A DNA stretch of 64,000 nt from Chitinivorax sp. PXF-14. GTDB taxonomy: Bacteria; Pseudomonadota; Gammaproteobacteria; Burkholderiales; SCOH01. Position 1 is the first letter of the stretch, and every line of letters begins with the position of its first letter. The position numbers and the translations under genes were made by a program. The stretch is from the NCBI RefSeq assembly GCF_040812015.1, contig NZ_JBFNXJ010000017.1, positions 28,590-92,589 on the forward strand. The letters run 5' to 3'. The notes under the pieces are model-generated. The model was not told the origin of the DNA. It saw only the letters and a list, made by a program, of their open reading frames with translations, and searched no databases. Positions 20,565 to 60,752 of the stretch are shown piece after piece.

Positions 20565-22421
20565 ATGGCACTCACCGACATGTTCGTCCGGCAGGCCAAG
20601 GCCACCGGAAAGGACTACACGATCCCCGATTTCGACGGCCTCTCGTTGGCCGTCTCGGAAAAGGGCACCAAGTCCTGGCACTTTCGTTACACTTGGCTGG
20701 GCCGACAAAAGCGGATGTCCCTGGGGACGTATCCGGAGATCAGCCTGCGCGAAGCACGCGAGCGCCGCGACTACGCGCGAGCTCTGGTGGCCAAGGGCAT
20801 CAACCCCCAGCGGCAGCGAGAGAAGGATCGGCGCATCGCCACCCAGGCCGAGCAGAACACCTTCGAGGCGGTGTACGACAAGTGGCTCGCCTTCCGGGCG
20901 CAGGGACGCCTCAAGAAGGGCCGGCAGACCACGCTGTCGATGATCCCGCGCATCTTCACGAACGACATCCTGCCGAGTCTACGTAAGCGTTCGATCTACG
21001 AGATCACCCGCGCCGACCTACTTGAAATCGTCGACCGCATCGAGAAGCGCGGCGCGCCGTCCATCGCCGAGAAGGTACGTACCTGGTTCAACCAGCTTTT
21101 CCGGTATGCCCTCGTGATCGTGACGGGCCTGGAACAAAACCCGGCCTCCGCCCTGGATGTGGTCGCCATGCCCCAGCCGCCGGTACGCCACAACCCCTTC
21201 CTGCGCATGCCCGAATTGCCCGAGTTCTTGCAGTTGCTGCGCAAGTATCCCGGCAAGCTGAAAACGCAGCTTGGCCTCCGCCTGCTGTTGCTGACCGGCG
21301 TGCGAACCGGGGAACTGCGGCTGGCGACGCCCGACCAATTCCACCTCGACGATGGCCTGTGGATCATCCCGCCGGAGGTGGTGAAGCAGTTGGAATTGAA
21401 GATGCAGAAGGAGAACGTTCGGCCGGAGGACATCCCGCCCTATGTTGTGCCGCTGTCCGTGCAAGCGATCGAGATCGTTCGGCACTTGCTCGACCAGTTC
21501 AAACCAGCCCAGACGTACCTGTTCCCGGGGGACAAAAGTCTGAAGCGGCGCATCAGCGAGAACACCCTCAACAAGGCACTGCATCGCTTGGGATACGAGG
21601 GCCGGCTGACCGGCCACGGCATCCGCGGAACCATCTCGACCGCACTCAACGAACTGGGGTATCCCGAGAAGTGGGTGGACGCACAGCTATCTCACGTCGA
21701 TCCCAACCAGGTTCGCGCGACCTACAACCACGCCAAGTATGTGGAGCAGCGCCGGCGCATGATGCAGGACTGGGCTGACCGGCTGGACCTGTTCGAGCAG
21801 GGCCAGGTCGAAGCGGCCAGTACGCTGCTGACCATTCAACTGGATGGCTTTCCCGTGGTCTCCGCCGAGACAGAGGAGCAACCGTTGTCCGCGGCCAGGG
21901 CCGCTCCCACGCTGGTGGTGTCACAGCCGCCCCACGGGGCCATGGCGCTGGCCACGGCTCCGGTGCAGCGCCTGTCCGCAGTGCGCGTGCCCAAGACCGA
22001 GCCGGCCATCTCCAACGTCCAGCGCGAGCGGATGATCCTGCTCGACATTCTGGAGGCTCCGCACAACCTGTCCGTCGCCGACTATGCCAAGCTCGCCGGC
22101 AAGTCCCGCCGCTGGATCACTTACGAAATCCAGGCGGGTAACCTCCTGTCGATCAGTTTGGGCAACCGGGGGCAGCGTGTGCCGGATTGGCAGCTTGATC
22201 CCCTCAAGCTCCGGCTGGTCCAGACCATCCTCAGGCAGATGCCCCCGGGAGTGGACACGTGGCATATCTACCACGCGCTCACGCGGCCGAGCGGTCTGTT
22301 CCAGGGGCAGTCCCCCATCGATACGGTGACGCCGGAGAACCTGCACTTCGCCGTGCATCTGGTATGCGGCGCGGTGGGCGAGAAGGTGATGCAACGCGAC
22401 GGTCCTGGCATGCGATCCTGA
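20565..22421 (+). CDS. int: Tyrosine recombinase (P4/ICEclc IntB13-type integrase)
   Basis: 618 residues. An N-terminal arm-binding domain of the DUF4102 type (KDYTIPDFDGLSLAVSEKG, SLGTYPEISLREARERR) is followed by a SAM-like core domain and the catalytic domain. Catalytic set: Arg in LTGVRTGELRL (about 246), HGIR (about 352-355), His in LSHVDPNQ and the nucleophile Tyr in RATYNHAKY (about 387). A C-terminal extension of roughly 200 residues beyond the usual 420 is like IntB13 of ICEclc. The AGGAG just upstream supports the ATG at 20565. It integrates and excises the element at tRNA-Gly. Confidence 0.92.
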   Translation: MALTDMFVRQAKATGKDYTIPDFDGLSLAVSEKGTKSWHFRYTWLGRQKRMSLGTYPEISLREARERRDYARALVAKGINPQRQREKDRRIATQAEQNTFEAVYDKWLAFRAQGRLKKGRQTTLSMIPRIFTNDILPSLRKRSIYEITRADLLEIVDRIEKRGAPSIAEKVRTWFNQLFRYALVIVTGLEQNPASALDVVAMPQPPVRHNPFLRMPELPEFLQLLRKYPGKLKTQLGLRLLLLTGVRTGELRLATPDQFHLDDGLWIIPPEVVKQLELKMQKENVRPEDIPPYVVPLSVQAIEIVRHLLDQFKPAQTYLFPGDKSLKRRISENTLNKALHRLGYEGRLTGHGIRGTISTALNELGYPEKWVDAQLSHVDPNQVRATYNHAKYVEQRRRMMQDWADRLDLFEQGQVEAASTLLTIQLDGFPVVSAETEEQPLSAARAAPTLVVSQPPHGAMALATAPVQRLSAVRVPKTEPAISNVQRERMILLDILEAPHNLSVADYAKLAGKSRRWITYEIQAGNLLSISLGNRGQRVPDWQLDPLKLRLVQTILRQMPPGVDTWHIYHALTRPSGLFQGQSPIDTVTPENLHFAVHLVCGAVGEKVMQRDGPGMRS

Positions 22422-37514: not shown

Positions 37515-40403
37515 TCACGCCAACGCGTCGAGCGCGAGCGACTCGATCCCGCGGGCACGGTCGATCTTCTCGGCCACCTTGAAGGCGGCATCCAGTTCGC
37601 CAATGCCGTACTGCTGCATCAACTGGTAGCGCTCTGCCTTCTCTTCCGGCTCGGTCTGGGCCAACGCCAAGTACAGGCTGGGCGGCACCGCGCGGAACAG
37701 CACTTCCATCGACTTGGACAGGATCACGCCCTCGCTGAACTTGCCGGCCTCCTTGCGGGCGGAGAGCATCAGCGCCTTCTGCGCCGGGTTCAGCTCGCGG
37801 AAGCGCGCGATCTTCTCCACCTCGTCCGGGGGCATCGACAGGCAGATCCACCACTCGATCATGTTGAGCATCGGTTCGGCCGCCTTGGGCAGGTCGTCGA
37901 TGTTCTGGGTCGCCAGCCAGTACCAGGCGCCGAGCTTGCGCCACATCTTGGTGATCTTGACCACGTAGGGGGCGAGCAGCGGATTCTTGGTGATGATGTG
38001 CCCCTCGTCGGTGACGTTGATGATCGGCCGGCCGAGGAACTGGTCGCGCTCAGCGATGTTGTTCACCGTGTTGATGAGGCTGATGTAGGCGATCGAGAGC
38101 TGGGCGTTGTAGCCCTCGCGGGCGAAGGTCGCCAGGTCCACGATCGTGATGTCGGCCTCGGGCCAGGGCGTGCCGGGCCGATCGAACATTTCGCCGTCGA
38201 CGCCTTGGCAGAACATGTCCATGGCGTCGGCCATCTCCAGCAGCCGGGTGCGCCGTGCCTCCGGCAACGTCGCATCGCGGGCGCGTTCGCGCAGCACATC
38301 GCGCACGTCGCGCGTGAGCACGGTGCGTTTCTCCGCCACGCAGCGCTGAGCCGCATCGAGAATGCACTGGCGGATCAGGCTGCGGTCGGCGCGCGTCATG
38401 CGCGCTTCTTCCTTGTCCTCGCCACCGGTGATCATCAGGCGCGCGGTGATCTCCAGCTCGCCGAGCACGTCGCGCTGTTCGTCAGCATCGGCGACACGCG
38501 CTGCCTCGTCGCGGTCCTCGTCCAGGTCATCGGCATCCAGCGTCTGCACCTGGCTGGGCGTCTCCACCAGGCGGTGTGCATCGGCAAACGGAGCGAGGCT
38601 GACCCCGGCGCCGGGGGCGAGCTTCACGCGATGCACTGTGAGGCCCAGCCGCGCGGCGAAATCGCCGAACAGGCCAAAGCTGTTGCCCGCCTCGACGATA
38701 AAGAGGCGCGGCCGGTAGATAGCCGTCACCTGGTTCAGGATGTTGTTGAGGGTCGCGCTCTTGCCCGAGCCGGTGGGGCCGAACAGGAACAGGTGCGCAT
38801 TCATCTGCCGGTCGAGGCGATTCAAGGGATCGAAGGTGATGGGACCGCCGCCGCGGTTGAAGAAGGTGATGCCCGGATGCCCCGTCCCCTGGCTGCGCCC
38901 CCAGACCGGCGCGAGGTTCGCGGCATGTTGCGCGAACATGAGCTGGGTGTACCACTGGCGCTTGTCGAGGGCCGGGTCGAACACGCAGGGCAGCCAACGC
39001 AGGTAGCTGTTGAGCGGCGCCACCTCGTCTTCTTCGCGCACCGGTTGCAGACCGGCGTTGAGCATGACGTTGACCAGTTGCAGGCCCCGGGCGTCGAGCT
39101 GCGCCAGATCGCGCCCGCGCAGGTAGAACGCCAGCGCGCCGCGATAGAGCTTGTGCGCGCTGCCGATCAAGGTGCGCGCCTGCTGCACGTCCTGGCGGGT
39201 CTGCTCCGAAGCGAGGGTCTCGCCGACCGACTTCCTGCTCAGGTGGTTCAGGTACGCTTCCAGCACGTCCTGGGGCGTGGCAACGAGCGTGAGGCACATC
39301 ACCGTGTCTTCCGGCATCTGGTCGAACAGCGCATTGACGGCATCACCGCCCTTGCGGGTCTCCCCGGTGATGTGGCCCGTTGGCGGAGGCATGCGCAGGC
39401 GGTCCATCACGACCACCCGGTGCGGCATGCCGTCGAAGAGCCAGGTGCCGTTGCCCACGTCCGAGCCCGGCTGGCCGAAGAACAGACGTTGCGCGAAGTC
39501 GCCGCTGGCCAGCTCGATTTCCCCCTCTTCCATCTCCTCGGGATAGCGGGTCAGCGCGTAGAAGCGCTCGCGATCTTCGGCGCCCGGCCCCAGCAGCGTC
39601 GGATGGGGGTTGAGCCACCGCAGCAGCCAGTCGTGGATGTCGGCGGCGTTCATGCGCCGCGCCTTCACGCCCGCGTTTGCGAGGCCGCCCACGAGCCGGT
39701 CGCAGATCGTCGCCAGCGCCTGCTCGGGGGACTGGCCGCGGCGGGGCGATGCGGAAATGGGCGTGCGCCGATAGACCACCATGCGCACGCGCCGAACCTG
39801 GCCGCGCCACTGCAGGCGCGTCACCGTGGTGTCCTCGAACAGGCCTCCGGGCTTGGCGATCGCGCGCAGGTGGTGGGTGAAGAAGCGCAGGTAGAACTCG
39901 CTGAAGGCGCTGCCCCGGGCGCGTGGCCGCACGTAGCTGGCCAGCCCGCGCAGATAGCCATCCCAGTTCGCCTCGTCCTGGGCGTAGAGCTGGACCACCC
40001 AGGGGTTCTCGTCGAGTTCGTCGAAGGAGTCCTGCAGGGCGTTCTCCAGCGCATCGCGCGCCTGCCACAGCCAGGTCAGTTCACGCCCCTCGGTGCCGAC
40101 CGGCGCCAACTCGAAGAAGGCCGCCACCGACTGGCCGTCTTCCAGCAGCATGCACTTCGACTCGGTCAGGTATTCGACCCAGGGCAACAGATCGGCGAAG
40201 GACGGGGCCACCCCGTAGAGCGCCTGGGCGTCCGCCTCGGTGGCCGGCTTGCGGCGGCGGACGGCCAGCGCACTGCCGGGCTCGCTGATGCCATGCGTAG
40301 CCAGCATCGACACGTGCCGTGTCCAGGCGTCGTCGGCAGCTGCTTCTGCGCCGGCTGGGGTTTCGGCCTGGCGCGCCCGCAGGAAGGGAACGGACCAGGC
40401 CAT
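37515..40403 (-). CDS. VirB4/TraC-type conjugative transfer ATPase (TIGR03744-like)
   Basis: 962 residues. The Walker A motif is FLFGPTGSGKSATLNNIL at about residue 545 and the Walker B region contains INVTDEGHIIT. The N-terminal CagE/VirB4 domain and the C-terminal RecA-like domain are both present (MIEWWICLSMPPDEVEKIARF near the end). It powers pilus biogenesis at the inner membrane. ATG at 40403 overlaps the stop of the upstream lipoprotein gene (TGATG); a TTG three bases earlier is also in frame. Confidence 0.92.
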   Translation of the reverse strand: MAWSVPFLRARQAETPAGAEAAADDAWTRHVSMLATHGISEPGSALAVRRRKPATEADAQALYGVAPSFADLLPWVEYLTESKCMLLEDGQSVAAFFELAPVGTEGRELTWLWQARDALENALQDSFDELDENPWVVQLYAQDEANWDGYLRGLASYVRPRARGSAFSEFYLRFFTHHLRAIAKPGGLFEDTTVTRLQWRGQVRRVRMVVYRRTPISASPRRGQSPEQALATICDRLVGGLANAGVKARRMNAADIHDWLLRWLNPHPTLLGPGAEDRERFYALTRYPEEMEEGEIELASGDFAQRLFFGQPGSDVGNGTWLFDGMPHRVVVMDRLRMPPPTGHITGETRKGGDAVNALFDQMPEDTVMCLTLVATPQDVLEAYLNHLSRKSVGETLASEQTRQDVQQARTLIGSAHKLYRGALAFYLRGRDLAQLDARGLQLVNVMLNAGLQPVREEDEVAPLNSYLRWLPCVFDPALDKRQWYTQLMFAQHAANLAPVWGRSQGTGHPGITFFNRGGGPITFDPLNRLDRQMNAHLFLFGPTGSGKSATLNNILNQVTAIYRPRLFIVEAGNSFGLFGDFAARLGLTVHRVKLAPGAGVSLAPFADAHRLVETPSQVQTLDADDLDEDRDEAARVADADEQRDVLGELEITARLMITGGEDKEEARMTRADRSLIRQCILDAAQRCVAEKRTVLTRDVRDVLRERARDATLPEARRTRLLEMADAMDMFCQGVDGEMFDRPGTPWPEADITIVDLATFAREGYNAQLSIAYISLINTVNNIAERDQFLGRPIINVTDEGHIITKNPLLAPYVVKITKMWRKLGAWYWLATQNIDDLPKAAEPMLNMIEWWICLSMPPDEVEKIARFRELNPAQKALMLSARKEAGKFSEGVILSKSMEVLFRAVPPSLYLALAQTEPEEKAERYQLMQQYGIGELDAAFKVAEKIDRARGIESLALDALA

Positions 40404-40837
40404 CAATAGTCCTCCAACCGTTCGCCCGGCATGGCGTACTGCACTCGCTGGTAGAGCGGAAACACCGTGGTGTAGCCGGGCACCGGCACGGGGTCGGTGC
40501 CGGCCAGGTGGGGGAAGACGTACATCACCAGGTCCGGGTTCGGCAGCCGGTGGAACTGGCGGTAGATTTCGTTGGCCGCCGTGCGGGTGTAGGCCGCGTT
40601 ATTCGCCGGCGCGGCCTGCGCGTCGGCCTCGGTCAGCGGCCGGCGCAGGCCCTGGCGCGCATCGAGCAGTTGCCGGGCAGGCTGGCCCCCGCCCGCGCTG
40701 CCGCCGGTCTCCTGGTTCCAGACATCTAGCATGGTGTGATCGCCATGCGGCAGCACCTTGTCCTTGCTGGTGGCACAGCCGCCCAGCGCCGTGGCCACGA
40801 GCATGGCCACGACCGTATCAGTCCAGTTCCGACGCAT
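40403..40837 (-). CDS. Conjugative transfer region lipoprotein (TIGR03751-like)
   Basis: 144 residues from the ATG at 40837. Signal peptide with lipobox LGGC (Cys about 21), then the conserved segment TMLDVWNQETGG and a C-terminal half ending PVPGYTTVFPLYQRVQYAMPGE. It overlaps the upstream gene by 20 bases. TraV-like outer-membrane channel lipoprotein by position and family memory. Confidence 0.82.
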   Translation of the reverse strand: MRRNWTDTVVAMLVATALGGCATSKDKVLPHGDHTMLDVWNQETGGSAGGGQPARQLLDARQGLRRPLTEADAQAAPANNAAYTRTAANEIYRQFHRLPNPDLVMYVFPHLAGTDPVPVPGYTTVFPLYQRVQYAMPGERLEDY

Positions 40838-45006: not shown

Positions 45007-45371
45007 GGCAACGGCTCCTGCCGTTCATCGCGGCGGACGTAGTCGCCGGTCAGCGGCACGGGGTCGCGCGGCTGGGCGCGCGGCGGGACGAGGTAGTCCT
45101 GCACGCCGGCGCGGACGCGCTTGAGGTCGGTGCGCAGCCGGGCGTAGTCGAAGTGGTAGCGGGCACGTTCCCGCGGCGCGTAGTTGGCGGCGTGTTCGAC
45201 CAGGCGGTCGGTCAGGTCGAGTTGACGTGCGAGTGCTGCGAGGCGCTCACGCTCCGGCGTGTCATCACCGGCATGGACGGGACGCGGGAGCGAGAACGAG
45301 ACGGCCAATGCCAATGGCAGTACTGCCATCGAGCGAAGCCATATGGATGTGCGTCGGCAGGTCTGTCCCAT
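45003..45371 (-). CDS. RAQPRD-family ICE protein (TIGR01690-like)
   Basis: 122 residues with a signal peptide (AVLPLALAVSFSLPRPVHA), a helical body and the signature RAQPRDPVPLTGDYV near the C-terminus that names the family. First gene of the transfer operon 45,371 to 36,051. Function unknown; periplasmic. Confidence 0.9.
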   Translation of the reverse strand: MGQTCRRTSIWLRSMAVLPLALAVSFSLPRPVHAGDDTPERERLAALARQLDLTDRLVEHAANYAPRERARYHFDYARLRTDLKRVRAGVQDYLVPPRAQPRDPVPLTGDYVRRDERQEPLP

Positions 45372-45584
45372 CGTGCCATTCCCTGTGAAGCGAATGGCGT
45401 TGATGCTGCGGCTGGCGCTGGGCGAGCGCCGCAGGGAATGGGAACTCCTGCACCACCGGATTGATGAGACTTCGGTTCCTGCTCCAGGCCGAAGGCATAG
45501 CGATCTTTCGCTGGCTCGGGTTCGTCCCGAACGAAGTGTTCGTGTCAGCCCTTTGCGTTTATTTCGTTTTTCGATTGCTTCGCA

Positions 45585-45590
45585 TAAAAT
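45585..45590 (+). promoter_or_regulatory. Candidate -10 of the helix-turn-helix gene
   Basis: TAAAAT lies about 35 bases before the ATG at 45625 in an AT-rich island of the otherwise GC-rich gap 45372-45624. No good -35 is seen, so this is tentative. The same gap must also hold the promoter of the opposing transfer operon; I see no clear box for it. Confidence 0.3.
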
Positions 45591-45624
45591 GCGCCGTCAT
45601 GCATTTCAACTGCCTGAGACTCCC

Positions 45625-46089
45625 ATGAACACTTCAGTCCAAACCCGGATGAAGCTGCCCGACGAACGGGAAGTGCAAATGGCTTTGCAGGGGCTGCGCG
45701 CTCTTGTGCCCTGCCTTTCCGGCCGGCGCAAAACCCAGCGCATACAGGTCTTCGATGAAAGGAGCCAGGCCCACGAGGTGGAGTTGCCCACTTTGGCACT
45801 GCGTCTGCTGGAGGAGGTGCTCGCCGGGCTTGCCGGCGGCAATGCGATCAAGGTCGTGCCGATACATGCCGAGCTGACTACACAGGAGGCTGCCGACCTG
45901 CTCAACGTGTCCAGACCCCATCTGATCAAGCTTCTGGAGGAAGGAGAGCTGCCATTCCACTGGACAGGCAAGCATCGCCGTGTGCGGCTTGCAGACCTGA
46001 TGCAGTTCAGGGAGACGCGGGAACGCTCCAGCGAACAGGCCTTGGACGAGTTGAGTCGCCAGGCCCAGGAACTGGGGATGGGTTACTAA
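45625..46089 (+). CDS. Excisionase-type helix-turn-helix protein, antitoxin-like
   Basis: 154 residues from the ATG at 45625 with GAGAC just upstream. A C-terminal helix-turn-helix of the excisionase/MerR kind (TTQEAADLLNVSRPHLIKLLEEGELPFHWTGKHRRVRLADL) follows an N-terminal helical part. Proteins of this sort usually precede a PIN-domain toxin gene and act as antitoxin. No PIN gene follows here: the next gene is the cytosine methyltransferase 65 bases on. It may be an orphan left when the restriction island was inserted, or a regulator of that island. Confidence 0.75.
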   Translation: MNTSVQTRMKLPDEREVQMALQGLRALVPCLSGRRKTQRIQVFDERSQAHEVELPTLALRLLEEVLAGLAGGNAIKVVPIHAELTTQEAADLLNVSRPHLIKLLEEGELPFHWTGKHRRVRLADLMQFRETRERSSEQALDELSRQAQELGMGY

Positions 46090-51234: not shown

Positions 51235-51933
51235 TCATGGGGACGTGGTAGAACCACCAAGAGAAGGGGACTTCGACATAGTCGTAGTCCTCGGTGTAAC
51301 GACCTTCTTGGTCGAGTGCACGGCTAGCACGTTGCACACAAAACGCTCACCGGCGTTTCGAGCGCTGACCGCAGTCAGCACATACTGCACGACGAACATC
51401 ACGGCACCGACCCACATGGCCTTCAGGCTTGCATCGGCGATAAATAGACCGAGCGGCGCGATGACCGTGAGCGGCAGCGACAGCGCGGCCATATCGCGGT
51501 ACATAAGGAAGTCTTTCTGAGCGTAAGCCACCTCAGGAATTGTCTCGACCTGTTTGTACAGTTTGTACCACTTCGAGTTCTGTTCTTTAGGCTCGTCCGT
51601 CCATGCACCGGCGTTCTTCTTTAGCTGAACCATGTCCACACGGTGATCTGCCGGCCCGTATTTCGTGAACGCCTCGCATCCCGGCAGCCAGCCGTAGGGT
51701 TTCCAGTACACGAGCATGGCCTTGAAGTTCGATGACATCACGTTCATCAGCAGGAGCACGACAATCGGCAACACTGCAGCGCCGAGCGCGCGATATACGC
51801 CGAGCTGCGTAGTGGTGGCGCTGGTGATTAGCTCGGGCGCAACGAAGAGGGCTAGTACGATGGCATCAGCCGTCGCGAGAGCTACGTGCCAAGCGAAGTT
51901 TAGCGACTTCAAGGATCGTTCAGTGCCTCTCAT
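51235..51933 (-). CDS. Four-helix membrane protein partner of an MBL-fold protein
   Basis: 232 residues, four predicted membrane helices at about 14-33, 46-66, 148-166 and 172-190, with a large soluble loop of about 80 residues between helices 2 and 3 (including KWYKLYKQVETIPEVAYAQKDF) and a conserved-looking stretch after helix 4 (SARNAGERFVCNVLA). Layout resembles the four-helix effectors linked to nucleotide-signalling defence systems (S-4TM/SLATT type) but I cannot assign a family. ATG overlaps the MBL stop (ATGA), so its dose is tied to that protein. A membrane-damaging effector is a reasonable guess, no more. Confidence 0.7.
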   Translation of the reverse strand: MRGTERSLKSLNFAWHVALATADAIVLALFVAPELITSATTTQLGVYRALGAAVLPIVVLLLMNVMSSNFKAMLVYWKPYGWLPGCEAFTKYGPADHRVDMVQLKKNAGAWTDEPKEQNSKWYKLYKQVETIPEVAYAQKDFLMYRDMAALSLPLTVIAPLGLFIADASLKAMWVGAVMFVVQYVLTAVSARNAGERFVCNVLAVHSTKKVVTPRTTTMSKSPSLGGSTTSP

Positions 51934-52811
51934 CCGTGGTACTCCGTGTCGATGGTGTAGCCCTGATCATCCACGTCGATTACGATCCAGCCGTCCCTGC
52001 GTGTCGTTAGCACGTGCCTATCCTTCATTGTTGTTCGCACTCGTACACCACCTTGCCGGACTACCTTGCGGTAGTCCGGCACCATCTCTTGCGTCTTGTA
52101 CACCTTGCGCTTGTCGGAGATCACCACACACGAAGGAGTGAAGTACTTGAAAATGTCTTCGCAGTATCCGCTCTCGCGTCCGTGGTGCGACGCCATCAGG
52201 ATCTCAGTGTCTGACAGTTCAGCCCGGAAGTCAGCCCGTTGTAGCAAGGCGGCCCAGCCTGGTTTTTCCAGATCGCCGGGGAATAGCATCTTGAAGTTCG
52301 CGTACTTGATGAACGTTGAGAAGCTCAGGTTGTTCGTGTCCTTGAACTGGCCGTACCCACTGCCATACGAGTTGTAGAACGCTTTGTATGTGATGCCATT
52401 CATGCTGGTGTTAAACGGTGCGGTGACATTCTCGGTGAATGTGCCGAGCGCGTTCACGTACCATGTGGCATCTTTGGTGAGTGGGCCACTCACTAGCTTA
52501 ATGCGGCGCATCTCCTCTCTGGTGTACGTCGGATTTCGTAGCAGTGTGACTACTTGAATGCCGGCGTCTTCCAAACCTTTCAAGTCGGACATGTGGTCTT
52601 GGTCAGCGTTGGTGATGAAGAGGTAGTCGAGCTTGTCGCGGCCCATTGCCTTGATTGCAGTACTCGGCTTGAAGTCAGCCGATGAGCCGGAATCGATCAT
52701 GGCAATTCGGCCACCAATCTCGTGGTTCAGGCCAACTTTGGTCACGTGTTGGAGCATCACGCAGCATCCGTGCTCGACATCTTCCACCCGTATTCGCATA
52801 AACCCTGGCAT
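51930..52811 (-). CDS. ComEC/Rec2-like MBL-fold protein
   Basis: About 293 residues from the ATG at 52811 (GTG at 52817 and ATG at 52799 are alternatives). The metallo-beta-lactamase fold is seen in AMIDSGSSADFKPS, LFITNADQDHMSDLKGL (N-x-D-x-D-H, where the first His of the ComEC-type H-x-D-x-D-H is Asn), LLFPGDLEK and LMASHHGRESGYC. Metal binding at the second site is likely kept. No membrane segments, so a cytosolic hydrolase, possibly of nucleic acid or cyclic nucleotide. It is separated by 112 bases from the WYL gene on the same strand. Confidence 0.8.
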   Translation of the reverse strand: MPGFMRIRVEDVEHGCCVMLQHVTKVGLNHEIGGRIAMIDSGSSADFKPSTAIKAMGRDKLDYLFITNADQDHMSDLKGLEDAGIQVVTLLRNPTYTREEMRRIKLVSGPLTKDATWYVNALGTFTENVTAPFNTSMNGITYKAFYNSYGSGYGQFKDTNNLSFSTFIKYANFKMLFPGDLEKPGWAALLQRADFRAELSDTEILMASHHGRESGYCEDIFKYFTPSCVVISDKRKVYKTQEMVPDYRKVVRQGGVRVRTTMKDRHVLTTRRDGWIVIDVDDQGYTIDTEYHG

Positions 52812-52923
52812 CCTCACCTCACCGCGACACCAGCGTCGGCAACGCTAAAAGCAGTCCGGTGACCAAGCGGACATCGCGCAAGCATAAACCTTTGAACTGA
52901 TCAACAGTGCTTGTCATGTGAAG

Positions 52924-53826
52924 TCAGGCCTGTACCGTCAATGCATCGATATAAGGTTGGATTTCATCGCGATTCTTGAGCGTGATTTGCTGCGCGAGCG
53001 GGTCCGGCGCTTCCTTGGTATGCAAGCCCAGACGCCTCAGCGTGTAGTACAGAAACGCTTGGCGGCATGGAAGTTTGACCTGCCCGTCTTCCATGCCGTA
53101 GTCCAGCTCCAAGACTCGCTTCTTGGCCGGGGGCAATTCAGGGTGCGGCGTAAGGACCAGCATCAGCACAGTATGCCAATGCGCATCCTGGCTGAAGTCC
53201 ACTTCACTTGGCTCGAAACCGTCGATGCGAAGGATACGGGCAAGAACAAAATCGCTGAAGCGTTGGCGCTTGTGGCAAAACGCGCGCACGTGCCAACGAA
53301 AACCGTCGTTGCCAAGGGCGTGCGGTGACAGCATGCGAATCGATTCGTCCAGGGACGTCATGGACTGGTAGCTCACCCGAATGGCTTCCCGCTGCCGGAT
53401 TGCCCGAACCACCGCTTCGACGGTCTGCTCATTGATCGTGCGCCAAGGGGAAGGTGCCCAATCTGTCTCTGGCGCAGAGCCGATGAAGCTGGCAGCCGGT
53501 TCGACAACCCCCATCTTGGTTGCAAGCAACTCTGCCAGATAGCGCTGTGCCGAGCTTCGTTGATACAGCGGCTGGAAGCCCGGCGCAGCCGTGTAGGTCC
53601 TGGAGCTGCGGTCGTAGACCAAATTGCCCGGTGCCAACTCTGTGTACTTGGCAATGTCCAGTGAAGCCTGGGGAACAGAGATGCCGAAGTGCTCAGTGAG
53701 ATCCATTCGATTGATGCGCCGCTCCCAGCGCAAACGGAAATCGATGAATTGAAGTCTGCTCTCCAACCCCCAACTTAATCCCTTGGGTTCAGTGGGCTCG
53801 GCGGCAGTGACAGGGGACTCTTGCAT
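52924..53826 (-). CDS. WYL-domain transcriptional regulator, CapW/BrxR-like
   Basis: 300 residues from the ATG at 53826. The N-terminal winged helix (LESRLQFIDFRLRWERRINRMDLTEHFGISVPQASLDIAKYTELAPGNLVYDRSSRTYTA) is nearly the pattern of CapW/BrxR repressors. A WYL domain follows (REAIRVSYQSMTS, SPHALGNDGFRWHVRAFC) and a C-terminal WCX-like domain. Such regulators control CBASS, BREX and other phage-defence operons and release when DNA damage or ligand is sensed. It divides two operons, and a 17-bp palindrome lies in the gap to the plus-strand operon. Confidence 0.9.
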   Translation of the reverse strand: MQESPVTAAEPTEPKGLSWGLESRLQFIDFRLRWERRINRMDLTEHFGISVPQASLDIAKYTELAPGNLVYDRSSRTYTAAPGFQPLYQRSSAQRYLAELLATKMGVVEPAASFIGSAPETDWAPSPWRTINEQTVEAVVRAIRQREAIRVSYQSMTSLDESIRMLSPHALGNDGFRWHVRAFCHKRQRFSDFVLARILRIDGFEPSEVDFSQDAHWHTVLMLVLTPHPELPPAKKRVLELDYGMEDGQVKLPCRQAFLYYTLRRLGLHTKEAPDPLAQQITLKNRDEIQPYIDALTVQA

Positions 53827-53864
53827 CAATATCGCCTAAAAAGTAGACGGGCGTAAAAAATAGT

Positions 53865-53881
53865 CGTATATTAACTATACG
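53865..53881 (+). promoter_or_regulatory. 17-bp palindrome in the divergent promoter, likely WYL-regulator operator
   Basis: CGTATA-TTAAC-TATACG, perfect 6-bp arms, lies between the divergent starts at 53826 and 53916 in AT-rich DNA that must contain the promoters. Dimeric CapW/BrxR repressors bind inverted repeats at such places. Confidence 0.6.
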
Positions 53882-53915
53882 CGATCATCCTTCGGTCGTC
53901 TACCCGGAGACTCCC

Positions 53916-55109
53916 ATGCCCACCACCATCACGTTTTTCCCCGTCGATAACGGGGACATGACGCTCATCAAGTTCGGCGACCTCGACGCAACGACGCTGC
54001 TGATCGACATCAACATCCGGCAGGACGCCGACGACCCCGGAAAGGACGTGCGCGACGTTGCCAAGGACTTGCGCGAGCGGCTGAAAAAGGATGAGAACGG
54101 TAGGCCATACGTCGATGCCTTCCTGTTGAGCCACCCGGACCAAGACCATTGCCGAGGCCTGACGCGGCATTTCCACCTGGGGCCGCTGGACAAGTATCCG
54201 GATGACAAGAAGGACGACAAGGACAAGAAGATCGTGATCCGCGAGATGTGGTCGTCCCCGATCGTGTTTCGACGCGCCAGCAAGACGCACACCTTGAGCG
54301 ACGACGCCAAGGCATTCAACACGGAGGCGCGTCGGCGCGTACAGCTGAACCGCGACAAGAATTTCGCCGTCGGAAACGGTGACCGCATCCAGATCATGGG
54401 CGAAGACATCGACGGAAAAACCGATGACCTCACCTCGATTGTGCGGAAGGTGGACACGCGCTTCTCGACGATCAATGGCAAGAGTTCTGCATTCTTCTCT
54501 GCGTTTCTTTTGGCACCCCTGGATGCCCAGGACGACGAAGAAGAGGAAGAGTGCCTGGTCAAGAACCAGTCCAGCGTGATCCTGAACATCACATTGGCCG
54601 CTGATGCACAGACGCCGGATGGCGCGAAGTTCCTTACTGGTGGCGATGCCGAGGTATTCATCTGGAACCGCCAGTGGCAGCGCCACAAGGCCGAAGCCGA
54701 TGTGCTTGGGTACGACATCATGCAGGCACCGCATCACTGTTCCTGGCATTCGCTGTCCTATGACAGTTGGTCGGACTACCGTGAAAAGGCCAAACTCGAT
54801 GCCGATGCCCGCAAGGCGCTTTCGCAGACCCGCGACGGCGCCGTTATCGTCGCCAGTTGCAAGCCGATCGCAGACGACGACAGCGATCCGCCCTGCATCC
54901 GCGCAAAGCGTGAGTACGTAGCAATCGTGGACGAAGCAAAAGGCGAGTTCTACTGCACGGGCGAATATCCGAGCGAAAAGTCCGTGGAGCCCCTCGTTTT
55001 CACCGTCACCGCTCAGGGTGTGCAGCCACCCTCGAAGAAGGAAGCCGGATCGAAGGCCGCCGCCGTCATCACCTCCGCGCGCACGCCCATGCCGCACGGG
55101 GCATCATGA
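53916..55109 (+). CDS. MBL-fold hydrolase coupled to the E2-E1-JAB enzyme
   Basis: 397 residues. MBL fold with FFPVDNGDMTLIKFGDLDATTLLIDINI, the metal motif LLSHPDQDHCRGL (H73-x-D75-x-D77-H78, ComEC-like), LTGGDAEVF and the late MQAPHHCSWHS (about 270-278). A charged insert (KYPDDKKDDKDKKIVI and QDDEEEEECLVK) is unusual. No signal or membrane helix, so cytosolic. Start follows a CGGAGAC site. Its stop overlaps the next ATG by 4 bases, so MBL and conjugation enzyme are made together. Substrate unknown: it could cut a nucleic acid or act on the conjugated target. Confidence 0.85.
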   Translation: MPTTITFFPVDNGDMTLIKFGDLDATTLLIDINIRQDADDPGKDVRDVAKDLRERLKKDENGRPYVDAFLLSHPDQDHCRGLTRHFHLGPLDKYPDDKKDDKDKKIVIREMWSSPIVFRRASKTHTLSDDAKAFNTEARRRVQLNRDKNFAVGNGDRIQIMGEDIDGKTDDLTSIVRKVDTRFSTINGKSSAFFSAFLLAPLDAQDDEEEEECLVKNQSSVILNITLAADAQTPDGAKFLTGGDAEVFIWNRQWQRHKAEADVLGYDIMQAPHHCSWHSLSYDSWSDYREKAKLDADARKALSQTRDGAVIVASCKPIADDDSDPPCIRAKREYVAIVDEAKGEFYCTGEYPSEKSVEPLVFTVTAQGVQPPSKKEAGSKAAAVITSARTPMPHGAS

Positions 55110-57361
55110 CCGGCACCATCGCGGACGCACTGCATCAACTTCAGCGGCATCGAGGCCTTGTCCGCGTTGGCGAGCCAAGGAAAAGTGGTGAATCGACGCT
55201 GATTGAAGTCGATGTTGCTGTTGAACTGCCGAGCAGGTCTCGGCGCAATGGCGTATCCGAGACCGGAGTGCGCTCGGTCGAGACATGCGTTCTGGTATTC
55301 GGCCGTGGCTGGCCCATGTCCGCACCCAAGCCTTTTTTGCGTGCGGACTTCCCGCTCAACTTGCCGCACATCAATCCCCATCGTGAAGGCGAGTTGGTCT
55401 CGCCTTGCCTGTTCGAGGGGTCGTTGGACGAGCTGCTGCATCGATTTGGTCTGGACGCCATTGTCGATCAGTTGATCGTTTGGCTGCACAAGGCCGCAGC
55501 CGGGACGTTGCTGGACCTTGAACAGGGGTGGGAGCCGACGCGGCGAGACAGTTGTCCTTCGACCGTGGTATTCAGTGCCGAAAAGGTCGCTGCCGCTGCT
55601 CCCGCTGATGGCACGATTTTGGTAGTCCCCGCAGGCTACGTGACGATTGATGGCGGTCTGTACGCCATCGTCAACGCCGAACTGACCGCGCAAGTCGATC
55701 TTGTGTTTTCCCAAGACGTTCACAACGACAAGCTGGGTAAATGGGGGAATGGACATGTTGCGGCCTTCATCGCACGCGCTCCAATGACCGGGGGGCATCC
55801 GCATGTGGTTGGCCACTATCAACCAGAGACGGTTGTCGATCTCGCGACGTTGCTCGATCGAGCAGGGGAACTCGGCATCGATCGCGATGCTTTGACCCAG
55901 GGTTTAGACGGCTACTACGGGCGCTCGATCCTGGACACGCAGCAGGACTCGCGTGGCTGGGTGCATGGCTTGTACGCGATTGTGATTCTGGCTGTACAAA
56001 GGCCTGCGTCGCTGGTGGGTTCCCCAGGGAGAAGTGTCGAGGTATTGCCCTACGTGGTGCGCTATGAACTGAACGCTCAATCGCTCTTGGAGCGAAACGC
56101 CACGGTTCACCCGGCATTTCACGCGCATGCGTTGTCTCCCGAATTGCTGGCTAGGACGTCCGGCATTCCATCCGCTGCCACATCGCAGTCCCTGGTCGTG
56201 CTTGGCTGCGGAAGTCTTGGCTCGAAAATTGCCATGCAACTGGGGCGAGCAGGTTTCGGCTCAATGACTTTCATCGATAACGAATCCATGTCGCCTCACA
56301 ATGCAGCGCGGCATGCGCTCATTGAGCGGGCGTCGGTGCTGGTCCCGCCACGGAAGTCCGCGCTGATGAAGACGGCCTTTGAATCGCTGTCGCATCCTCA
56401 GTCGCGGGCGTTCGACATTGATGCAGTGACTCTCCTGGTCGATTCAGCACAGTTTGCGGCAACCGTTCCGCAGGATGCGGCTCTCATTGTGGATACTACG
56501 GCATCGCTTCAGGTGCTGGCCGCCGAATCACAATCAGCGGCACTGAATCAATCCCCTGCTCGGCTGGCTCGGGTCGTGATGTACGGTCAGGGGCGCTGTG
56601 TTGCGGTTCTGCTCGAAGGAGCTGGTCGCGCCGGCCGGGTTGATGACCTCACGGCCTTTTTGTTCGAGTGCTGCAGGTTTGTGCCGGAACTGCGTGCCTC
56701 GATTGCCGGTGATACGTCTGAGCCGACGCGCATCTTTGTGGGCGACAACTGCCGTTCACTGACGATGCCAATGTCCGATGCCGTTGTTTCGCGTTCTGCA
56801 TCTCTGGCCGGGTTGCAACTGGAGCGCTGGCTCGTTGATGGGCTTCCGAAGGAGGCGACGCTTTGCGCCGGAGTCTCGGATGCCGAAGGCCTCGGCATGG
56901 CATGGACCCGCAGCAGTCTTGGCCCGACCACTGTGCTCGAGGTGGCAGACGACGGTGGCTGGAGCATTCGGATTCTGTACCCGGTTGCGCAAGCGATCCA
57001 TGCTGATGCGCTGCACTGGGGCGCACGGGAAACAGGTGGGGCCTTGGTCGGTCGCATCTCATTTGAAAATCGAACCATCACCATTGCGGGCCTTGTTGAA
57101 GCCCCGCCCGATAGCGTTCGAGAAGCCGCTCGCTTCGTCCTCGGAACCAATGGGCTTGTTCAAAACTTGCGCGCCGCAAACGCGGTCTCTTTGGGGTATC
57201 TCGCTTTTATCGGCACCTGGCACAGTCACCCAAAAGGCGGCGCACATTCGGGCATAGACCGAAATACATTGCGAGGCATCGCGGAGGATGCAGGCGGTCT
57301 TCCCGCCGTGTCGTTGGTATGGACTCCGACGGGACTCACGTGTGCGGTTGATCGCTGGTAA
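55106..57361 (+). CDS. Single-chain E2-E1-JAB ubiquitin-like conjugation/deconjugation enzyme
   Basis: 751 residues, three modules. E2-like (about 1-145): FPLNLPHINPHREGELVSPCLFEG with likely catalytic Cys101, then WLHKAAAGTLLDLEQGWEP, as in CBASS Cap2. A linker (150-360) follows. E1/ThiF (about 360-580): nucleotide loop VVLGCGSLGSKIA (367-374) and Cys549 as a candidate catalytic thiol (DNCRSL). JAB/JAMM (about 625-751): ETGGALVGR (Glu642) and WHSHPKGGAHSGID (His706, His708, Asp718), a complete metal set. Cap2 joins the CD-NTase C-terminus to targets and Cap3 removes it; here both activities are fused and no CD-NTase or ubiquitin-like gene is visible nearby. Confidence 0.9.
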   Translation: MTGTIADALHQLQRHRGLVRVGEPRKSGESTLIEVDVAVELPSRSRRNGVSETGVRSVETCVLVFGRGWPMSAPKPFLRADFPLNLPHINPHREGELVSPCLFEGSLDELLHRFGLDAIVDQLIVWLHKAAAGTLLDLEQGWEPTRRDSCPSTVVFSAEKVAAAAPADGTILVVPAGYVTIDGGLYAIVNAELTAQVDLVFSQDVHNDKLGKWGNGHVAAFIARAPMTGGHPHVVGHYQPETVVDLATLLDRAGELGIDRDALTQGLDGYYGRSILDTQQDSRGWVHGLYAIVILAVQRPASLVGSPGRSVEVLPYVVRYELNAQSLLERNATVHPAFHAHALSPELLARTSGIPSAATSQSLVVLGCGSLGSKIAMQLGRAGFGSMTFIDNESMSPHNAARHALIERASVLVPPRKSALMKTAFESLSHPQSRAFDIDAVTLLVDSAQFAATVPQDAALIVDTTASLQVLAAESQSAALNQSPARLARVVMYGQGRCVAVLLEGAGRAGRVDDLTAFLFECCRFVPELRASIAGDTSEPTRIFVGDNCRSLTMPMSDAVVSRSASLAGLQLERWLVDGLPKEATLCAGVSDAEGLGMAWTRSSLGPTTVLEVADDGGWSIRILYPVAQAIHADALHWGARETGGALVGRISFENRTITIAGLVEAPPDSVREAARFVLGTNGLVQNLRAANAVSLGYLAFIGTWHSHPKGGAHSGIDRNTLRGIAEDAGGLPAVSLVWTPTGLTCAVDRW

Positions 57362-57601: not shown

Positions 57602-58186
57602 CTACAAGGATTTGGCGGGCAAAGCCTCAAGGCAGCAGCGCAACTTCTCCCTCAGTTCCTGTTGGACATCGGGGTTGGACAAGCCTGTAGTGCCATCGCA
57701 TGCAACCAGATTTTGCAAACAGGAGTCTGGCCAACCTTCCAAATCGTCATCGAGAGCTATCCACTGCCGGGGTTTTCTGCGCTGAGCGTCTTGTTGAACT
57801 TGCACCCCCCGGGGGGTGGAGCGGAACATGGACAGGTTCCAGGGGTCCACACCATGCACACGCCCGTGGTACGTTCCACCAATAAACCGAACACGCAAGG
57901 AGGCCGGAAGGCGTTTTAGGGTTGCGCTGTATCCGGGACGGATGCACCAGGTGCTACTGAGTACCAAAGCGACTGTTGGGTAAGGTTCAAGAACCGACTC
58001 CAGGATAGGAACCCATTCGAAAAGAGCATGTCCTACAGCCTCATACGGGCTCATGTAGATACCCTTGCTGGGATGCCAGAGTACTTTTTCGTGGTGGACC
58101 ACACCATCAAGGTCCAAATACAGAACGACGTCCGCACTGCGCGGAGTAGATGCCGGGAGATATGGGGAATTCTGGCCAGGGGGCAT
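57602..58186 (-). CDS. HAD-fold protein of the Swiss-army-knife RNA-repair type
   Basis: 194 residues. HAD motifs are present: LYLDLDGVVHHE with the nucleophile Asp and second Asp (about 24-26), the Ser/Thr motif VALVLSSTWC and the acidic motif QWIALDDDLEGWP. The pattern of a cap-less HAD with STWC is that of HAD domains found with RNA-repair and defence loci (HAD_SAK, recalled). Convergent with the E2-E1-JAB gene, so not in that operon, but inside the defence island. Phosphatase on nucleic acid ends is the likely activity. Confidence 0.75.
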   Translation of the reverse strand: MPPGQNSPYLPASTPRSADVVLYLDLDGVVHHEKVLWHPSKGIYMSPYEAVGHALFEWVPILESVLEPYPTVALVLSSTWCIRPGYSATLKRLPASLRVRFIGGTYHGRVHGVDPWNLSMFRSTPRGVQVQQDAQRRKPRQWIALDDDLEGWPDSCLQNLVACDGTTGLSNPDVQQELREKLRCCLEALPAKSL

Positions 58187-58428: not shown

Positions 58429-59181
58429 TTACATCGCTTGCATCCGCTTTGCGGCGCGAAGCTTCCGCATGGATTCTCCCTTTAGCTGCAGCCGATGAGC
58501 TTGATGAACAACCCTGTCAAGAATCGCGTCGGCAATTGTCGGATCAGGAAATAGCCCATGCCATTGATCTGTCGGGTACTGGCTCGTAATCAAGATGGAA
58601 CCGGACCGCATGCGTCTATCTACAACGTCCAACAGCACGTGAGCAGCTTGTGCGTTCAGGTTGCCGATGCCAAAGTCATCCAAGATGAGCAACTGCGGCT
58701 TGATCAGCGCCGCCTTTAACTTTGGCAAGGAGCCATCGAGCATCGCAGAGCCAATATCTGCGTACAGATCAGAGGCTCGGTAAAACACTACCGAGAGCTT
58801 GAGCCTGCAGGCCTGGGTTCCGAACGCGCATGCCAGCCACGTTTTCCCGACTCCTGTCGCGCCCAGGATGATGAGGTTCTGGTGACGATGAATCCACTCA
58901 CAACTAGATAGCGATGAAACGAGGGAGCGATCAAGCTGCCGACTAGCACGCGAGTCCAGGTCTTCGAGGTTTGCTGGCTCAGGAAGTGCTGCGCCTTTAA
59001 TCAAGCGCTTCAACTTTTTGTTTTCGCGCTCTGCCCACTCCCTTTCAACCAGCATGCCGAGCCTGTCTTCAAAGCTGAACTGCTGTAAGGATGGCGTGTC
59101 CATTTGAGTGCTCAAAGCGTCAGCCATGGCTCCCATGCGCAACTCCCGCAGGCGTGTGATGGTCTGATGAATGCCACTCAT
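58429..59181 (-). CDS. istB: IS21 helper ATPase IstB
   Basis: 250 residues, AAA+ of the DnaC/IstB type: Walker A LIILGATGVGKTWLACAFG (about 104-122), Walker B LLILDDFGIG and sensor ILITSQYPTDQWHGLF. It assists the transposase in target choice and assembly. Its ATG overlaps the istA stop (ATGA). Confidence 0.93.
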   Translation of the reverse strand: MSGIHQTITRLRELRMGAMADALSTQMDTPSLQQFSFEDRLGMLVEREWAERENKKLKRLIKGAALPEPANLEDLDSRASRQLDRSLVSSLSSCEWIHRHQNLIILGATGVGKTWLACAFGTQACRLKLSVVFYRASDLYADIGSAMLDGSLPKLKAALIKPQLLILDDFGIGNLNAQAAHVLLDVVDRRMRSGSILITSQYPTDQWHGLFPDPTIADAILDRVVHQAHRLQLKGESMRKLRAAKRMQAM

Positions 59182-60752
59182 GGATTGCCTCCGTAGTAGG
59201 AAGGTCCGCGCAGATTTTCATGTTGTGCGACAGGTGAAATTAGTGGGGGCGCCTGCCGGTCCGGTTGATTGCGAAAGATTGACTGAATGCTTCGTAGCGC
59301 CGTGATGTTTAACGGCAGCGAGTATGAGCAAACCTCTTCAAGACGAGACTCCCCATGCAGTCGCGCCAACTCGCGGAGTCGCTTGGCCGCGCGAATGCCA
59401 TTCACCATGTCAGAGCGGTCTTGCAAATGGTGGCTCAGCATGGCGTGCGTATTCGCACCGACGGTCTTTGCCCATTCAAGGAGGGCTTTAGGTTCAGCGT
59501 CAAGCACGCGTTGGTGTGCGATCGGGCGATGTTCCTGCAAGGTGACCATCGCGACGGAAGTCAGTTCCAATGCATGAAATGCCACCCGCTTACCCGACTC
59601 AAAAATTTCGAGCGTCTTTTCTGTGAATCTAGTATCGACCTTCTTCCCAATCAGATGGTACGGGACAGAGTAAAAGACCCCCCCATGTTCGACGTGGTAG
59701 TCGGCGTTGACGCGAATAGAGCGTTTCCAGTGGCATGGTTCAAATGCTGCGCTCGGCAGGGGTTTCAATGCAGCTTCCTCGACCTCTTTGAATCGCTGAA
59801 TGCGGCTGCCTGTCATTTTTTTGAATGGATGCGCATTCATGTCGGCAGTGAGCCGCCGTAGCTCTTGATTGAGCTCTTCGTAGCTGAAAAACACCCGGTC
59901 TCTCAAACGGAACAGCACCCAACGCTGCGCTATCTGAACGCCCACCTCAACCTTCCCTTTGTCCTGGGGCTTCCGCGCTCTGGTGGGCAGCACCGCCGAG
60001 TCATAGTGAGCGAGGCATTCGCGATATGCTGGATTCAAATCAATGTGGTCGCGGCCTCGCCGAAGCACTGCGGATTTCAGGTTGTCACAGACAATCCACT
60101 GGGGCACTCCGCCCAATGCAGAAAAGCAGTTGATATGACACTGCTGCCAGTGTTCAACCTTTTGGCTCGGAACTGCTTCCAGATAGGTGAGATTTGAGTA
60201 GCCGAGGACGGCCACAAAAATCTGTGCAAATGAGGATGGCCCTCCATGGGGGTCTCGAACCTCTACTGTTCTGCCCGCGAAGTCCACAAATAGTTTGTCG
60301 CCGGGAGCATGGTGCTGCCGCATGACTATGTGTAGTGACCTTCGCCAACGTCGATAGTGTTCTGTGAAAGCGCTATAGCCGACCCCATCGGGGCACCCCT
60401 CGCGCCACTCGCACCAGATGACCTCCAGCGTGCCGTCCTCGCGCTGCATTTGTTCGTGGACCCAGTTCCAATCGGGAGTGATCTTTTTCTGAGCCACCGA
60501 TTTGTCATGGTTGTTAAGTACCGATCTCCACTGATGATCATCGAGCAAGGACAGCTCGGGCCAGAGTCGGCCACTCTCCGCCAAGACCTGCCTGAGAGCT
60601 TTGACGCTGTTGTGCGAAACGCCAACCATCCTGCCGATTGCTCGGCTGGATTGGCGTTTGTCGTAAAAATGAAGGCGAGCGATCTCTCGCTGCAAATGAA
60701 TTGAAAGCCTCAAGGGCATGCTCCTGGATGTACTGCGCGATGAGACGCGCAT
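59178..60752 (-). CDS. istA: IS21 transposase IstA
   Basis: 524 residues (513 from an inner ATG at 60719 that follows AGGAG closely). N-terminal helix-turn-helix (QSSRAIGRMVGVSHNSVKALRQ), then a DDE integrase core with FVDFAGRTVEV, WIVCDNLKSAV and KGKVEVGVQ (the D, D and E positions), and a C-terminal beta-barrel. Length is typical for IstA, so the element is probably active or recently so. Confidence 0.92.
   Translation of the reverse strand: MRVSSRSTSRSMPLRLSIHLQREIARLHFYDKRQSSRAIGRMVGVSHNSVKALRQVLAESGRLWPELSLLDDHQWRSVLNNHDKSVAQKKITPDWNWVHEQMQREDGTLEVIWCEWREGCPDGVGYSAFTEHYRRWRRSLHIVMRQHHAPGDKLFVDFAGRTVEVRDPHGGPSSFAQIFVAVLGYSNLTYLEAVPSQKVEHWQQCHINCFSALGGVPQWIVCDNLKSAVLRRGRDHIDLNPAYRECLAHYDSAVLPTRARKPQDKGKVEVGVQIAQRWVLFRLRDRVFFSYEELNQELRRLTADMNAHPFKKMTGSRIQRFKEVEEAALKPLPSAAFEPCHWKRSIRVNADYHVEHGGVFYSVPYHLIGKKVDTRFTEKTLEIFESGKRVAFHALELTSVAMVTLQEHRPIAHQRVLDAEPKALLEWAKTVGANTHAMLSHHLQDRSDMVNGIRAAKRLRELARLHGESRLEEVCSYSLPLNITALRSIQSIFRNQPDRQAPPLISPVAQHENLRGPSYYGGNP

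What the first reader, a model, noticed from the sequence alone, without database searches (positions are those of the whole stretch)
53826..57361. WYL-controlled MBL + single-chain E2-E1-JAB operon without a CD-NTase: candidate stand-alone ubiquitin-like defence system
Seen: the MBL gene (53916-55109) and E2-E1-JAB gene (55106-57361) overlap by ATGA. The 751-residue enzyme keeps all likely catalytic groups (Cys101; Cys549; Glu642, His706, His708, Asp718). A CapW/BrxR-like repressor is divergent. Known: in type II CBASS, Cap2 (E2-E1) and Cap3 (JAB) act on the CD-NTase; other bacterial systems (Bil, Bub) use separate E1, E2, JAB and a ubiquitin-like protein. E2/E1/JAB combinations have been noted in comparative genomics. 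Inference: here conjugation and removal are one chain and the MBL protein replaces the cyclase, either as the modified effector or as a nuclease. No ubiquitin-like gene is visible, so what is conjugated is open; a C-terminal tail of the MBL protein is possible.
Basis: partly seen in the sequence, partly recalled or inferred. Interest (0 to 1): 0.85.

Follow-up and report, generated by a model that had tools for sequence, protein, structure and literature searches.

The report
Nuclease used as ubiquitin-like tag
This stretch holds a known kind of bacterial operon (6A-MBL, which NCBI lists as anti-phage) whose nuclease-like protein ends in a glycine tail kept in nearly all relatives examined, so the neighbouring ubiquitin-type enzyme would likely attach that protein itself, not a separate ubiquitin, to a target.

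Summary
In detail: MBL gene 53916-55109 and E2-E1-JAB gene 55106-57361 overlap by ATGA, beside a divergent CapW-type gene. The architecture is not new. It is row 6a of Iyer, Burroughs and Aravind 2006, and both proteins exceed NCBIfam's '6A-MBL' equivalog cut-offs.

The MBL proteins keep a glycine at or within eight residues of the C-terminus: 351 of 352 listed homologues whose core reaches the end. It survives at 20-26% identity and in a Bacteroidota copy, on a disordered tail. Where residues follow it, they come in 60 versions, as if trimmed. In type II CBASS, Cap2 charges the cyclase's C-terminal Gly/Ala (PMC10097602). I infer that JAB exposes Gly395, E1-E2 conjugates the MBL protein, and JAB reverses it.

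Beyond the finding: a membrane-protein gene sits beside the core in most loci (a patatin phospholipase in one distant copy), often with a second MBL hydrolase (PADLOC PDC-M48B). The window has both (51235-52817).

Acceptor, trigger, MBL activity and phage resistance are untested. Verdict: new member of a known kind, with a directly testable mechanism.

The parts
53916..55109 (+). 6A-MBL hydrolase, 397 aa: ComEC-type MBL core (1-375) with metal residues H73 D75 D77 H78 D244 H273 H274, disordered tail 376-397
55080..55106 (+). C-terminal tail of the MBL protein ending ...TPMPHG-AS; Gly395 (codon 55098-55100) is the proposed conjugation residue, Ala396-Ser397 the proposed trimmed extension
   Evidence: G395 invariant in 55 of 55 chosen proteins; [HAS]G within last 10 residues in 351 of 352 homologues
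55106..57361 (+). E2-E1-JAB single-chain enzyme, 751 aa (Cap2-Cap3-like): E2 Cys101, E1 Cys549, JAB E642/H706/H708/S715/D718
52924..53829 (-). CapW/BrxR-type WYL protein, predicted repressor, divergent to the MBL gene
   Evidence: PDB 7tb6 CapW 3.5e-75, BrxR 3.5e-44; present in 30 of 30 close loci with flank
53843..53903 (.). shared promoter region: 17-bp palindrome CGTATA-TTAAC-TATACG (53865-53881), candidate CapW operator, inside a wider GTAGACG...CGTCTAC pair
   Evidence: arms pair at 5-6 of 6 positions in 17 of 18 distinct intergenic sequences (8 different 17-mers, best register taken, no shuffled control), with paired changes in L020/L021
51930..52817 (-). second MBL-fold hydrolase (295 aa), behind the CapW-type gene on the same strand
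   Evidence: PADLOC PDC-M48B 6.6e-49; homologues in other 6A-MBL loci
51235..51933 (-). membrane protein, 232 aa, about 4 predicted TM segments; candidate effector or acceptor
   Evidence: hydropathy; homologues at 28-32% identity in five other 6A-MBL loci

Best explanation
This is a 6A-MBL operon in which the ComEC-like MBL protein, whose homologues examined here nearly all keep a C-terminal glycine, is likely itself the ubiquitin-like partner: the fused E2-E1-JAB enzyme would trim its tail, activate Gly395 and attach it to a target protein. Shown here: the gene unit, its recurrence, intact catalytic residues, the conserved glycine on a disordered tail with variable extensions, the Cap2-like E1 and the CapW-like regulator. 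Inferred, in order: (1) a CapW-type repressor holds the operon down and is released by single-stranded DNA (known for CapW, not tested here). (2) The JAB domain removes the 0-8 residues after the glycine. (3) E1 adenylates the glycine and passes it to Cys549, then E2 Cys101. (4) E2 joins the MBL protein by an isopeptide bond to a lysine of an acceptor. (5) JAB reverses the bond. (6) Conjugation primes, restrains or localises the MBL hydrolase, probably a DNase, whose action limits the phage or kills the cell. The linked membrane protein, often with a second MBL hydrolase, is probably a membrane-directed effector of the same regulated unit.
For: Gly at or within 8 residues of the end: 114 of 114, 117 of 118 and 120 of 120 homologues in three searches. 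These are the best 120 listed of 3389, 2016 and 2585 hits; 8 of 360 were dropped beforehand because my filter did not see the core reach the C-terminus, and 3 of those 8 also end in PHG or PHG+2. 238 of 352 end exactly in G; 114 carry 1-8 residues after the motif glycine, in 60 versions. One representative per 60% identity: 16 of 16, against 21 of 163 control ORF clusters of the same loci (binomial P 6e-15, treating the 16 as independent). Negative controls in the same loci: E2-E1-JAB ends W in 29 of 31, the second MBL of cluster 3 ends G in 1 of 26. The tail is otherwise the least conserved part: mean top-residue frequency 0.35 at 371-392 against 0.55-0.59 in the four blocks of 1-370, and 1.0 at G395; it is disordered in the model. 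The E1 part is nearest to Cap2 solved with a cyclase C-terminus. In CBASS the C-terminal Gly/Ala is what Cap2 charges, and Cap3 cuts after it (PMC10097602, passages). The same genome carries a CBASS with a Cap2-like protein whose cyclase ends ...RTKAG, a parallel case.
Against: No biochemistry. P0214, a 564-aa protein, lacks the motif. By [HAS]G the 14-protein set gives 13 of 14 (L038 has YG), and there the glycine column is not invariant because MAFFT places tails with extensions out of register. The proteins are related, so 351 of 352 is not 351 independent events. The window's own protein ends in AS, so it needs trimming, unproven for this JAB. The AF2 model of E2-E1-JAB is moderate (pLDDT 71.9); whole-chain superposition on Cap2 (7to3) gives rmsd 23.4, so only the E1 part supports the likeness. 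No complex was modelled.
Confidence: 0.77

Rival explanations
1. The E2-E1-JAB enzyme uses an unlinked ubiquitin-like protein (host ThiS/MoaD or other) and conjugates it onto the MBL protein, which is the target and not the donor.
For: Iyer et al. 2006 proposed use of an endogenous ThiS/MoaD or a linked Ub-like protein for such systems; other operon types of that paper (6d, 6e) encode their own Ub-like proteins.
Against: A pure target would not need a glycine fixed at the C-terminus with a variable extension. The E1 part is closest to Cap2, which takes a cyclase C-terminus directly. No small ORF recurs near the unit in more than 11 of 30 loci.
Confidence: 0.12
2. The JAB domain, or conjugation, acts as the on-switch of a gated pro-nuclease, as proteases do for the related HamM and Avs1a nucleases; the glycine tail matters only for docking.
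For: The MBL matches LmuA (4.2e-12) and RTasMBL (8.8e-7) models of PADLOC and Avs1a of NCBIfam (4e-5). Related defence MBLs are pro-nucleases cut by partner proteases (PMC12799240, parts 1-3 of 6 read). The window protein has an acidic, lower-confidence loop at 203-216.
Against: Cap3, the nearest characterised JAB, cut at the cyclase C-terminus; that JAB enzymes do not cut loops is recalled. Whether the insertions cover the active site was not measured, and no cleavage site was established.
Confidence: 0.08
3. The unit is not a defence system but a stress or damage response carried by mobile elements.
For: CapW-type regulation responds to single-stranded DNA (PMC13373217, passages); no phage test exists here.
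Against: NCBI lists it as anti-phage. It lies beside remains of an MZA-like defence system and conjugation genes, and relatives occur on many plasmids.
Confidence: 0.1

Closest known systems
6A-MBL system (NCBIfam NF058523, NF058524; operon type 6a of Iyer, Burroughs and Aravind 2006, PMC1779556)
   Same: Same core: triple-module E2-E1-JAB gene next to an MBL gene; both proteins over the curated cut-offs.
   Different: The parts of the 2006 paper that I read (sections 14 and 16, table row 6a, passages) give usually two genes and say nothing of the MBL C-terminus. Here a CapW-type gene, a membrane protein and often a second MBL belong to the unit.
Type II CBASS (Cap2, Cap3, CD-NTase)
   Same: Cap2-like E1-E2 plus JAB; enzyme partner with a small C-terminal residue (charged and conjugated in CBASS, inferred here).
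   Different: No cyclase; the partner is an MBL hydrolase; Cap2- and Cap3-like parts are one chain.
Bil and Bub pathways
   Same: Bacterial E1/E2/JAB-type systems; 219 of 544 Bub operons are linked to CapW or CapH+CapP (PMC13373217, passages).
   Different: They use ubiquitin-like proteins (recalled); none is found as a constant partner here.
Gated MBL nucleases of Hachiman, AVAST, Lamassu, DRT and Canu (PMC12799240)
   Same: ComEC-like MBL fold in a defence operon with a peptidase partner.
   Different: Partner is a JAB domain in an E2-E1 chain, not a trypsin or caspase; proteolytic gating not shown.

Membership tests
6A-MBL system | MBL protein over NF058524 cut-off | tested here: met
   442.9 bits vs 220
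6A-MBL system | E2-E1-JAB single chain over NF058523 cut-off, adjacent to the MBL gene | tested here: met
   556.6 bits vs 320; 4-bp overlap
6A-MBL system | anti-phage activity | not testable with these tools
   label from NCBIfam only
Type II CBASS | CD-NTase in the operon | tested here: not met
   none among ORFs of 80 aa or more beside the unit, read by eye; the neighbours shared by over 11 of 31 loci are MBL, E2-E1-JAB, CapW-type, membrane protein and second MBL only
Type II CBASS | Cap2-like E1-E2 charging a C-terminal Gly/Ala of the partner | tested here: inconclusive
   fold and residues fit, conserved Gly present; chemistry not testable
Bil / Bub | ubiquitin-like protein gene in the operon | tested here: not met
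   the unit's genes overlap or nearly abut; no ORF of 40-150 aa within 2 kb is shared by more than 11 of 30 loci
CapW regulators | WYL protein related to CapW, divergent to an immune-type operon, with a palindrome in the shared promoter | tested here: met
   DNA binding not tested
Gated pro-nucleases (HamM/Avs1a) | ComEC-like MBL nuclease fold | tested here: met
   [not shown]
Gated pro-nucleases (HamM/Avs1a) | active-site-blocking insertions cut by an operon-encoded endopeptidase | not tested
   insertion geometry not measured; no trypsin or caspase seen in the unit

The most novel reading that the evidence does not exclude
A 397-residue metal-dependent nuclease is its own ubiquitin: JAB unmasks its C-terminal glycine, E1-E2 welds the whole enzyme onto the membrane protein encoded in the same regulated unit, and infection releases it through JAB as a tethered-then-freed DNase. 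It would be a second case, after CD-NTases, of a catalytic enzyme serving as the ubiquitin-like modifier, with acceptor and eraser in one cassette.
Probability: 0.16. Interest if true: 0.78.

Novelty: new member of a known kind. Interest (0 to 1): 0.55.

Why it matters
What the 6a enzymes conjugate was left open in 2006, and I found no held paper that answers it. The conserved glycine names the candidate residue (Gly395 here) and reduces the question to one deletion and one western blot. If right, using a working enzyme as the ubiquitin-like modifier is not peculiar to cyclases but a general way in which Cap2-type enzymes control immune effectors. The recurring membrane protein (a patatin in one distant copy) and second MBL hydrolase give a first list of partners to test.

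Tried and rejected
Print: '6A-MBL' in 0 held papers. At least four of MBL, Cap2, Cap3, CBASS, ubiquitin: 11 papers, none with the word MBL. Further term searches (listings seen) showed no title or abstract on the MBL C-terminus. [quoted passage not shown] Four works likely to matter are not held (Ye 2026, Chambers 2024, Ledvina 2023, Burroughs 2015), so the glycine may already be in print there or in preprints.

A solved structure of either protein: only distant relatives.

The first counting script dropped nearly all rows through a faulty alignment filter; replaced. Its wider control ([HASKRY]G in the last ten) was 45 of 170 ORFs; the matched control ([HAS]G, one per cluster) is 21 of 163; some control ORFs are spurious frames. 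An Avs1a control search found one weak match in 143 genomes and was not used. P0004, the window's second MBL, also ends in HG, but its relatives L025, L027, L030 end RG, VY, VW, so I do not count it as a conjugation tail.

No membrane protein tested matched a PADLOC model named PDC-M48A, and the 307-aa ORF behind that of L065 matched nothing. Lysines invariant in the membrane proteins (one in A3, two in A4) are too few to argue for an acceptor site.
Full report
Observation. The named catalytic residues are correct and invariant in 10 of 10 aligned E2-E1-JAB proteins, nine of which are 21-75% identical to the window's. The WYL protein is a CapW/BrxR relative (PDB 7tb6, 3.5e-75; 7t8k, 3.5e-44).

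Identity. Both proteins exceed NCBIfam's curated cut-offs for the 'anti-phage 6A-MBL system'. The two-gene core is operon type 6a of Iyer, Burroughs and Aravind 2006: a triple-module E2-E1-JAB protein, in most operons almost always next to a metallo-beta-lactamase (sections 14 and 16 and passages read).

Recurrence. One scan of genome contigs gave 31 loci. In 30 of 30 that reach upstream of the E2-E1-JAB gene (L016 is too short) the MBL and CapW-type genes sit in the same arrangement. The E2-E1-JAB match is 85-93% identical to the window in 27 of 31 and 60-75% in four (L025, L027, L029, L030); L031, among the 27, has lost its middle. Record titles include Acinetobacter, Stutzerimonas, Bordetella, Azospirillum and Halomonas, so transfer must be recent and wide. 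Of 398 genomes of the phylum searched with NF058523, 6 exceed the cut-off, the window's own included. Six plasmid records that I chose to read (E. coli, Acinetobacter ursingii, Xanthomonas citri, Methylobacter, Hymenobacter, Vibrio parahaemolyticus) all carry MBL + E2-E1-JAB, five with a WYL gene; the Hymenobacter WYL protein has WYL and WCX domains but no BLASTP match to the window's.

A larger unit. Next to the core a membrane protein is nearly constant: cluster 2 in 28 of 31 genome loci plus a different family in L029, that is 29 of the 30 loci with flank; L024 has none. In L067, the sixth, a patatin-like phospholipase (2.9e-16) takes that place, which suggests that the slot holds membrane-directed effectors. 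By best BLASTP match four groups are used (cross-matches not examined); the window's P0005 aligns with those of L029, L036, L070, L071 and L072 (28-32% identity). A second MBL hydrolase accompanies 29 of 31 genome loci (26 cluster 3, one of them a fragment in L019; 3 cluster 26; not L001 or L029) and L062-L064, but I saw none in L066 or in the six plasmid loci. It matches PADLOC candidate PDC-M48B at 189-511 bits in five tested and at 164.6 bits for the window's P0004. In the window both genes sit behind the CapW-type gene (51235-52817). No small ORF (40-150 aa, within 2 kb) is shared by more than 11 of 30 loci, so a constant ubiquitin-like gene is absent.

The C-terminal glycine. The MBL proteins were read from the C-terminus. 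Three searches listed their best 120 of 3389, 2016 and 2585 hits. My filter for a core that reaches the C-terminus kept 352 of 360 and dropped 8. [HAS]G lies within the last ten residues in 351 of 352; 238 end exactly in G; 114 have 1-8 residues after the motif, in 60 versions. One per 60% identity leaves 16, of which 16 have the motif and 12 end in G, against 21 and 15 of 163 control ORF clusters from the same loci (binomial P 6e-15 and 5e-10, independence assumed). In an alignment of 55 chosen proteins (20-92% identity to the window) the glycine (G395) is invariant together with H73, D75, D77, H78, D244, H273 and H274, the metal residues as I recall the fold, while residues 371-392 are the least conserved part. 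In a second alignment of 14 the column is not invariant because extensions shift the register; read from the end, 13 of 14 have [HAS]G within ten residues and L038 has YG. The model shows the tail 376-397 as disordered.

Mechanism. In type II CBASS, Cap2 forms a thioester with the cyclase's C-terminal Gly (or Ala), and Cap3 cuts at that terminus (PMC10097602, passages). In a Bacillus CBASS the cyclase is joined to PspA and released by Cap3 (PMC11153139, abstract and passages). The 6A-MBL unit has the same domains in one chain and the same C-terminal mark on its MBL. I conclude that the MBL protein is most likely the conjugated species, that the JAB domain both trims the extension and reverses the bond, and that the CapW-type protein controls expression here. 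The 17-bp palindrome at 53865-53881 pairs at 5-6 of 6 positions in 17 of 18 distinct intergenic sequences (8 different 17-mers; L029 fails), with paired changes in L020 and L021 (best register taken, no shuffled control). That fits the roughly 20-bp palindromes bound by CapW (PMC9122588, passages). Acceptor, trigger and output remain open.

Internal comparison. The same genome carries a CBASS (phospholipase, cGAMP synthase ending ...RTKAG, E1-E2 protein), so two Cap2-type enzymes with glycine-marked partners coexist. Two further CBASS-like loci (L039, L040; SMODS nucleotidyltransferases) end in ...RFA, the alanine form.

Verdict. Real, already classified, with one strong inference and one fuller description of the locus that I did not find in the held papers. 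Interest 0.55.

Noticed in passing
[not shown]
   Followed up: partly
20565-46089: Integrase-like protein (20565-22421; 200 bits, under the cut-off), TraC of the PFL_4706 type (37515-40406, -; over the cut-off) and an excisionase-type DNA-binding protein (45259-46089): probably an integrating conjugative element with the operon as cargo.
   Followed up: partly
58429-60752: IS21-type pair on the minus strand: IstB (1.4e-69) and a transposase with rve and Mu-C domains.
   Followed up: partly
57602-58186: HAD_SAK_2 domain protein (1.4e-30), convergent with the E2-E1-JAB gene.
   Followed up: no
L068 (G000:C3:5383-16108): CBASS in the window's own genome: lipase, cGAMP synthase ending in RTKAG, E1-E2 protein; I saw no JAB gene among the ORFs listed.
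   Followed up: partly
L039, L040: E1-E2 plus separate JAB protein beside SMODS nucleotidyltransferases that end in ...RFA, the alanine variant of the same C-terminal mark.
   Followed up: partly
L067: A distant relative of the operon: its E2-E1-JAB gene is split by an IS66-type transposase unit, and a patatin-like phospholipase gene follows where others have a membrane protein.
   Followed up: partly
51930-52817: The window's second MBL also ends in HG, but its relatives do not share HG; left unexplained.
   Followed up: partly
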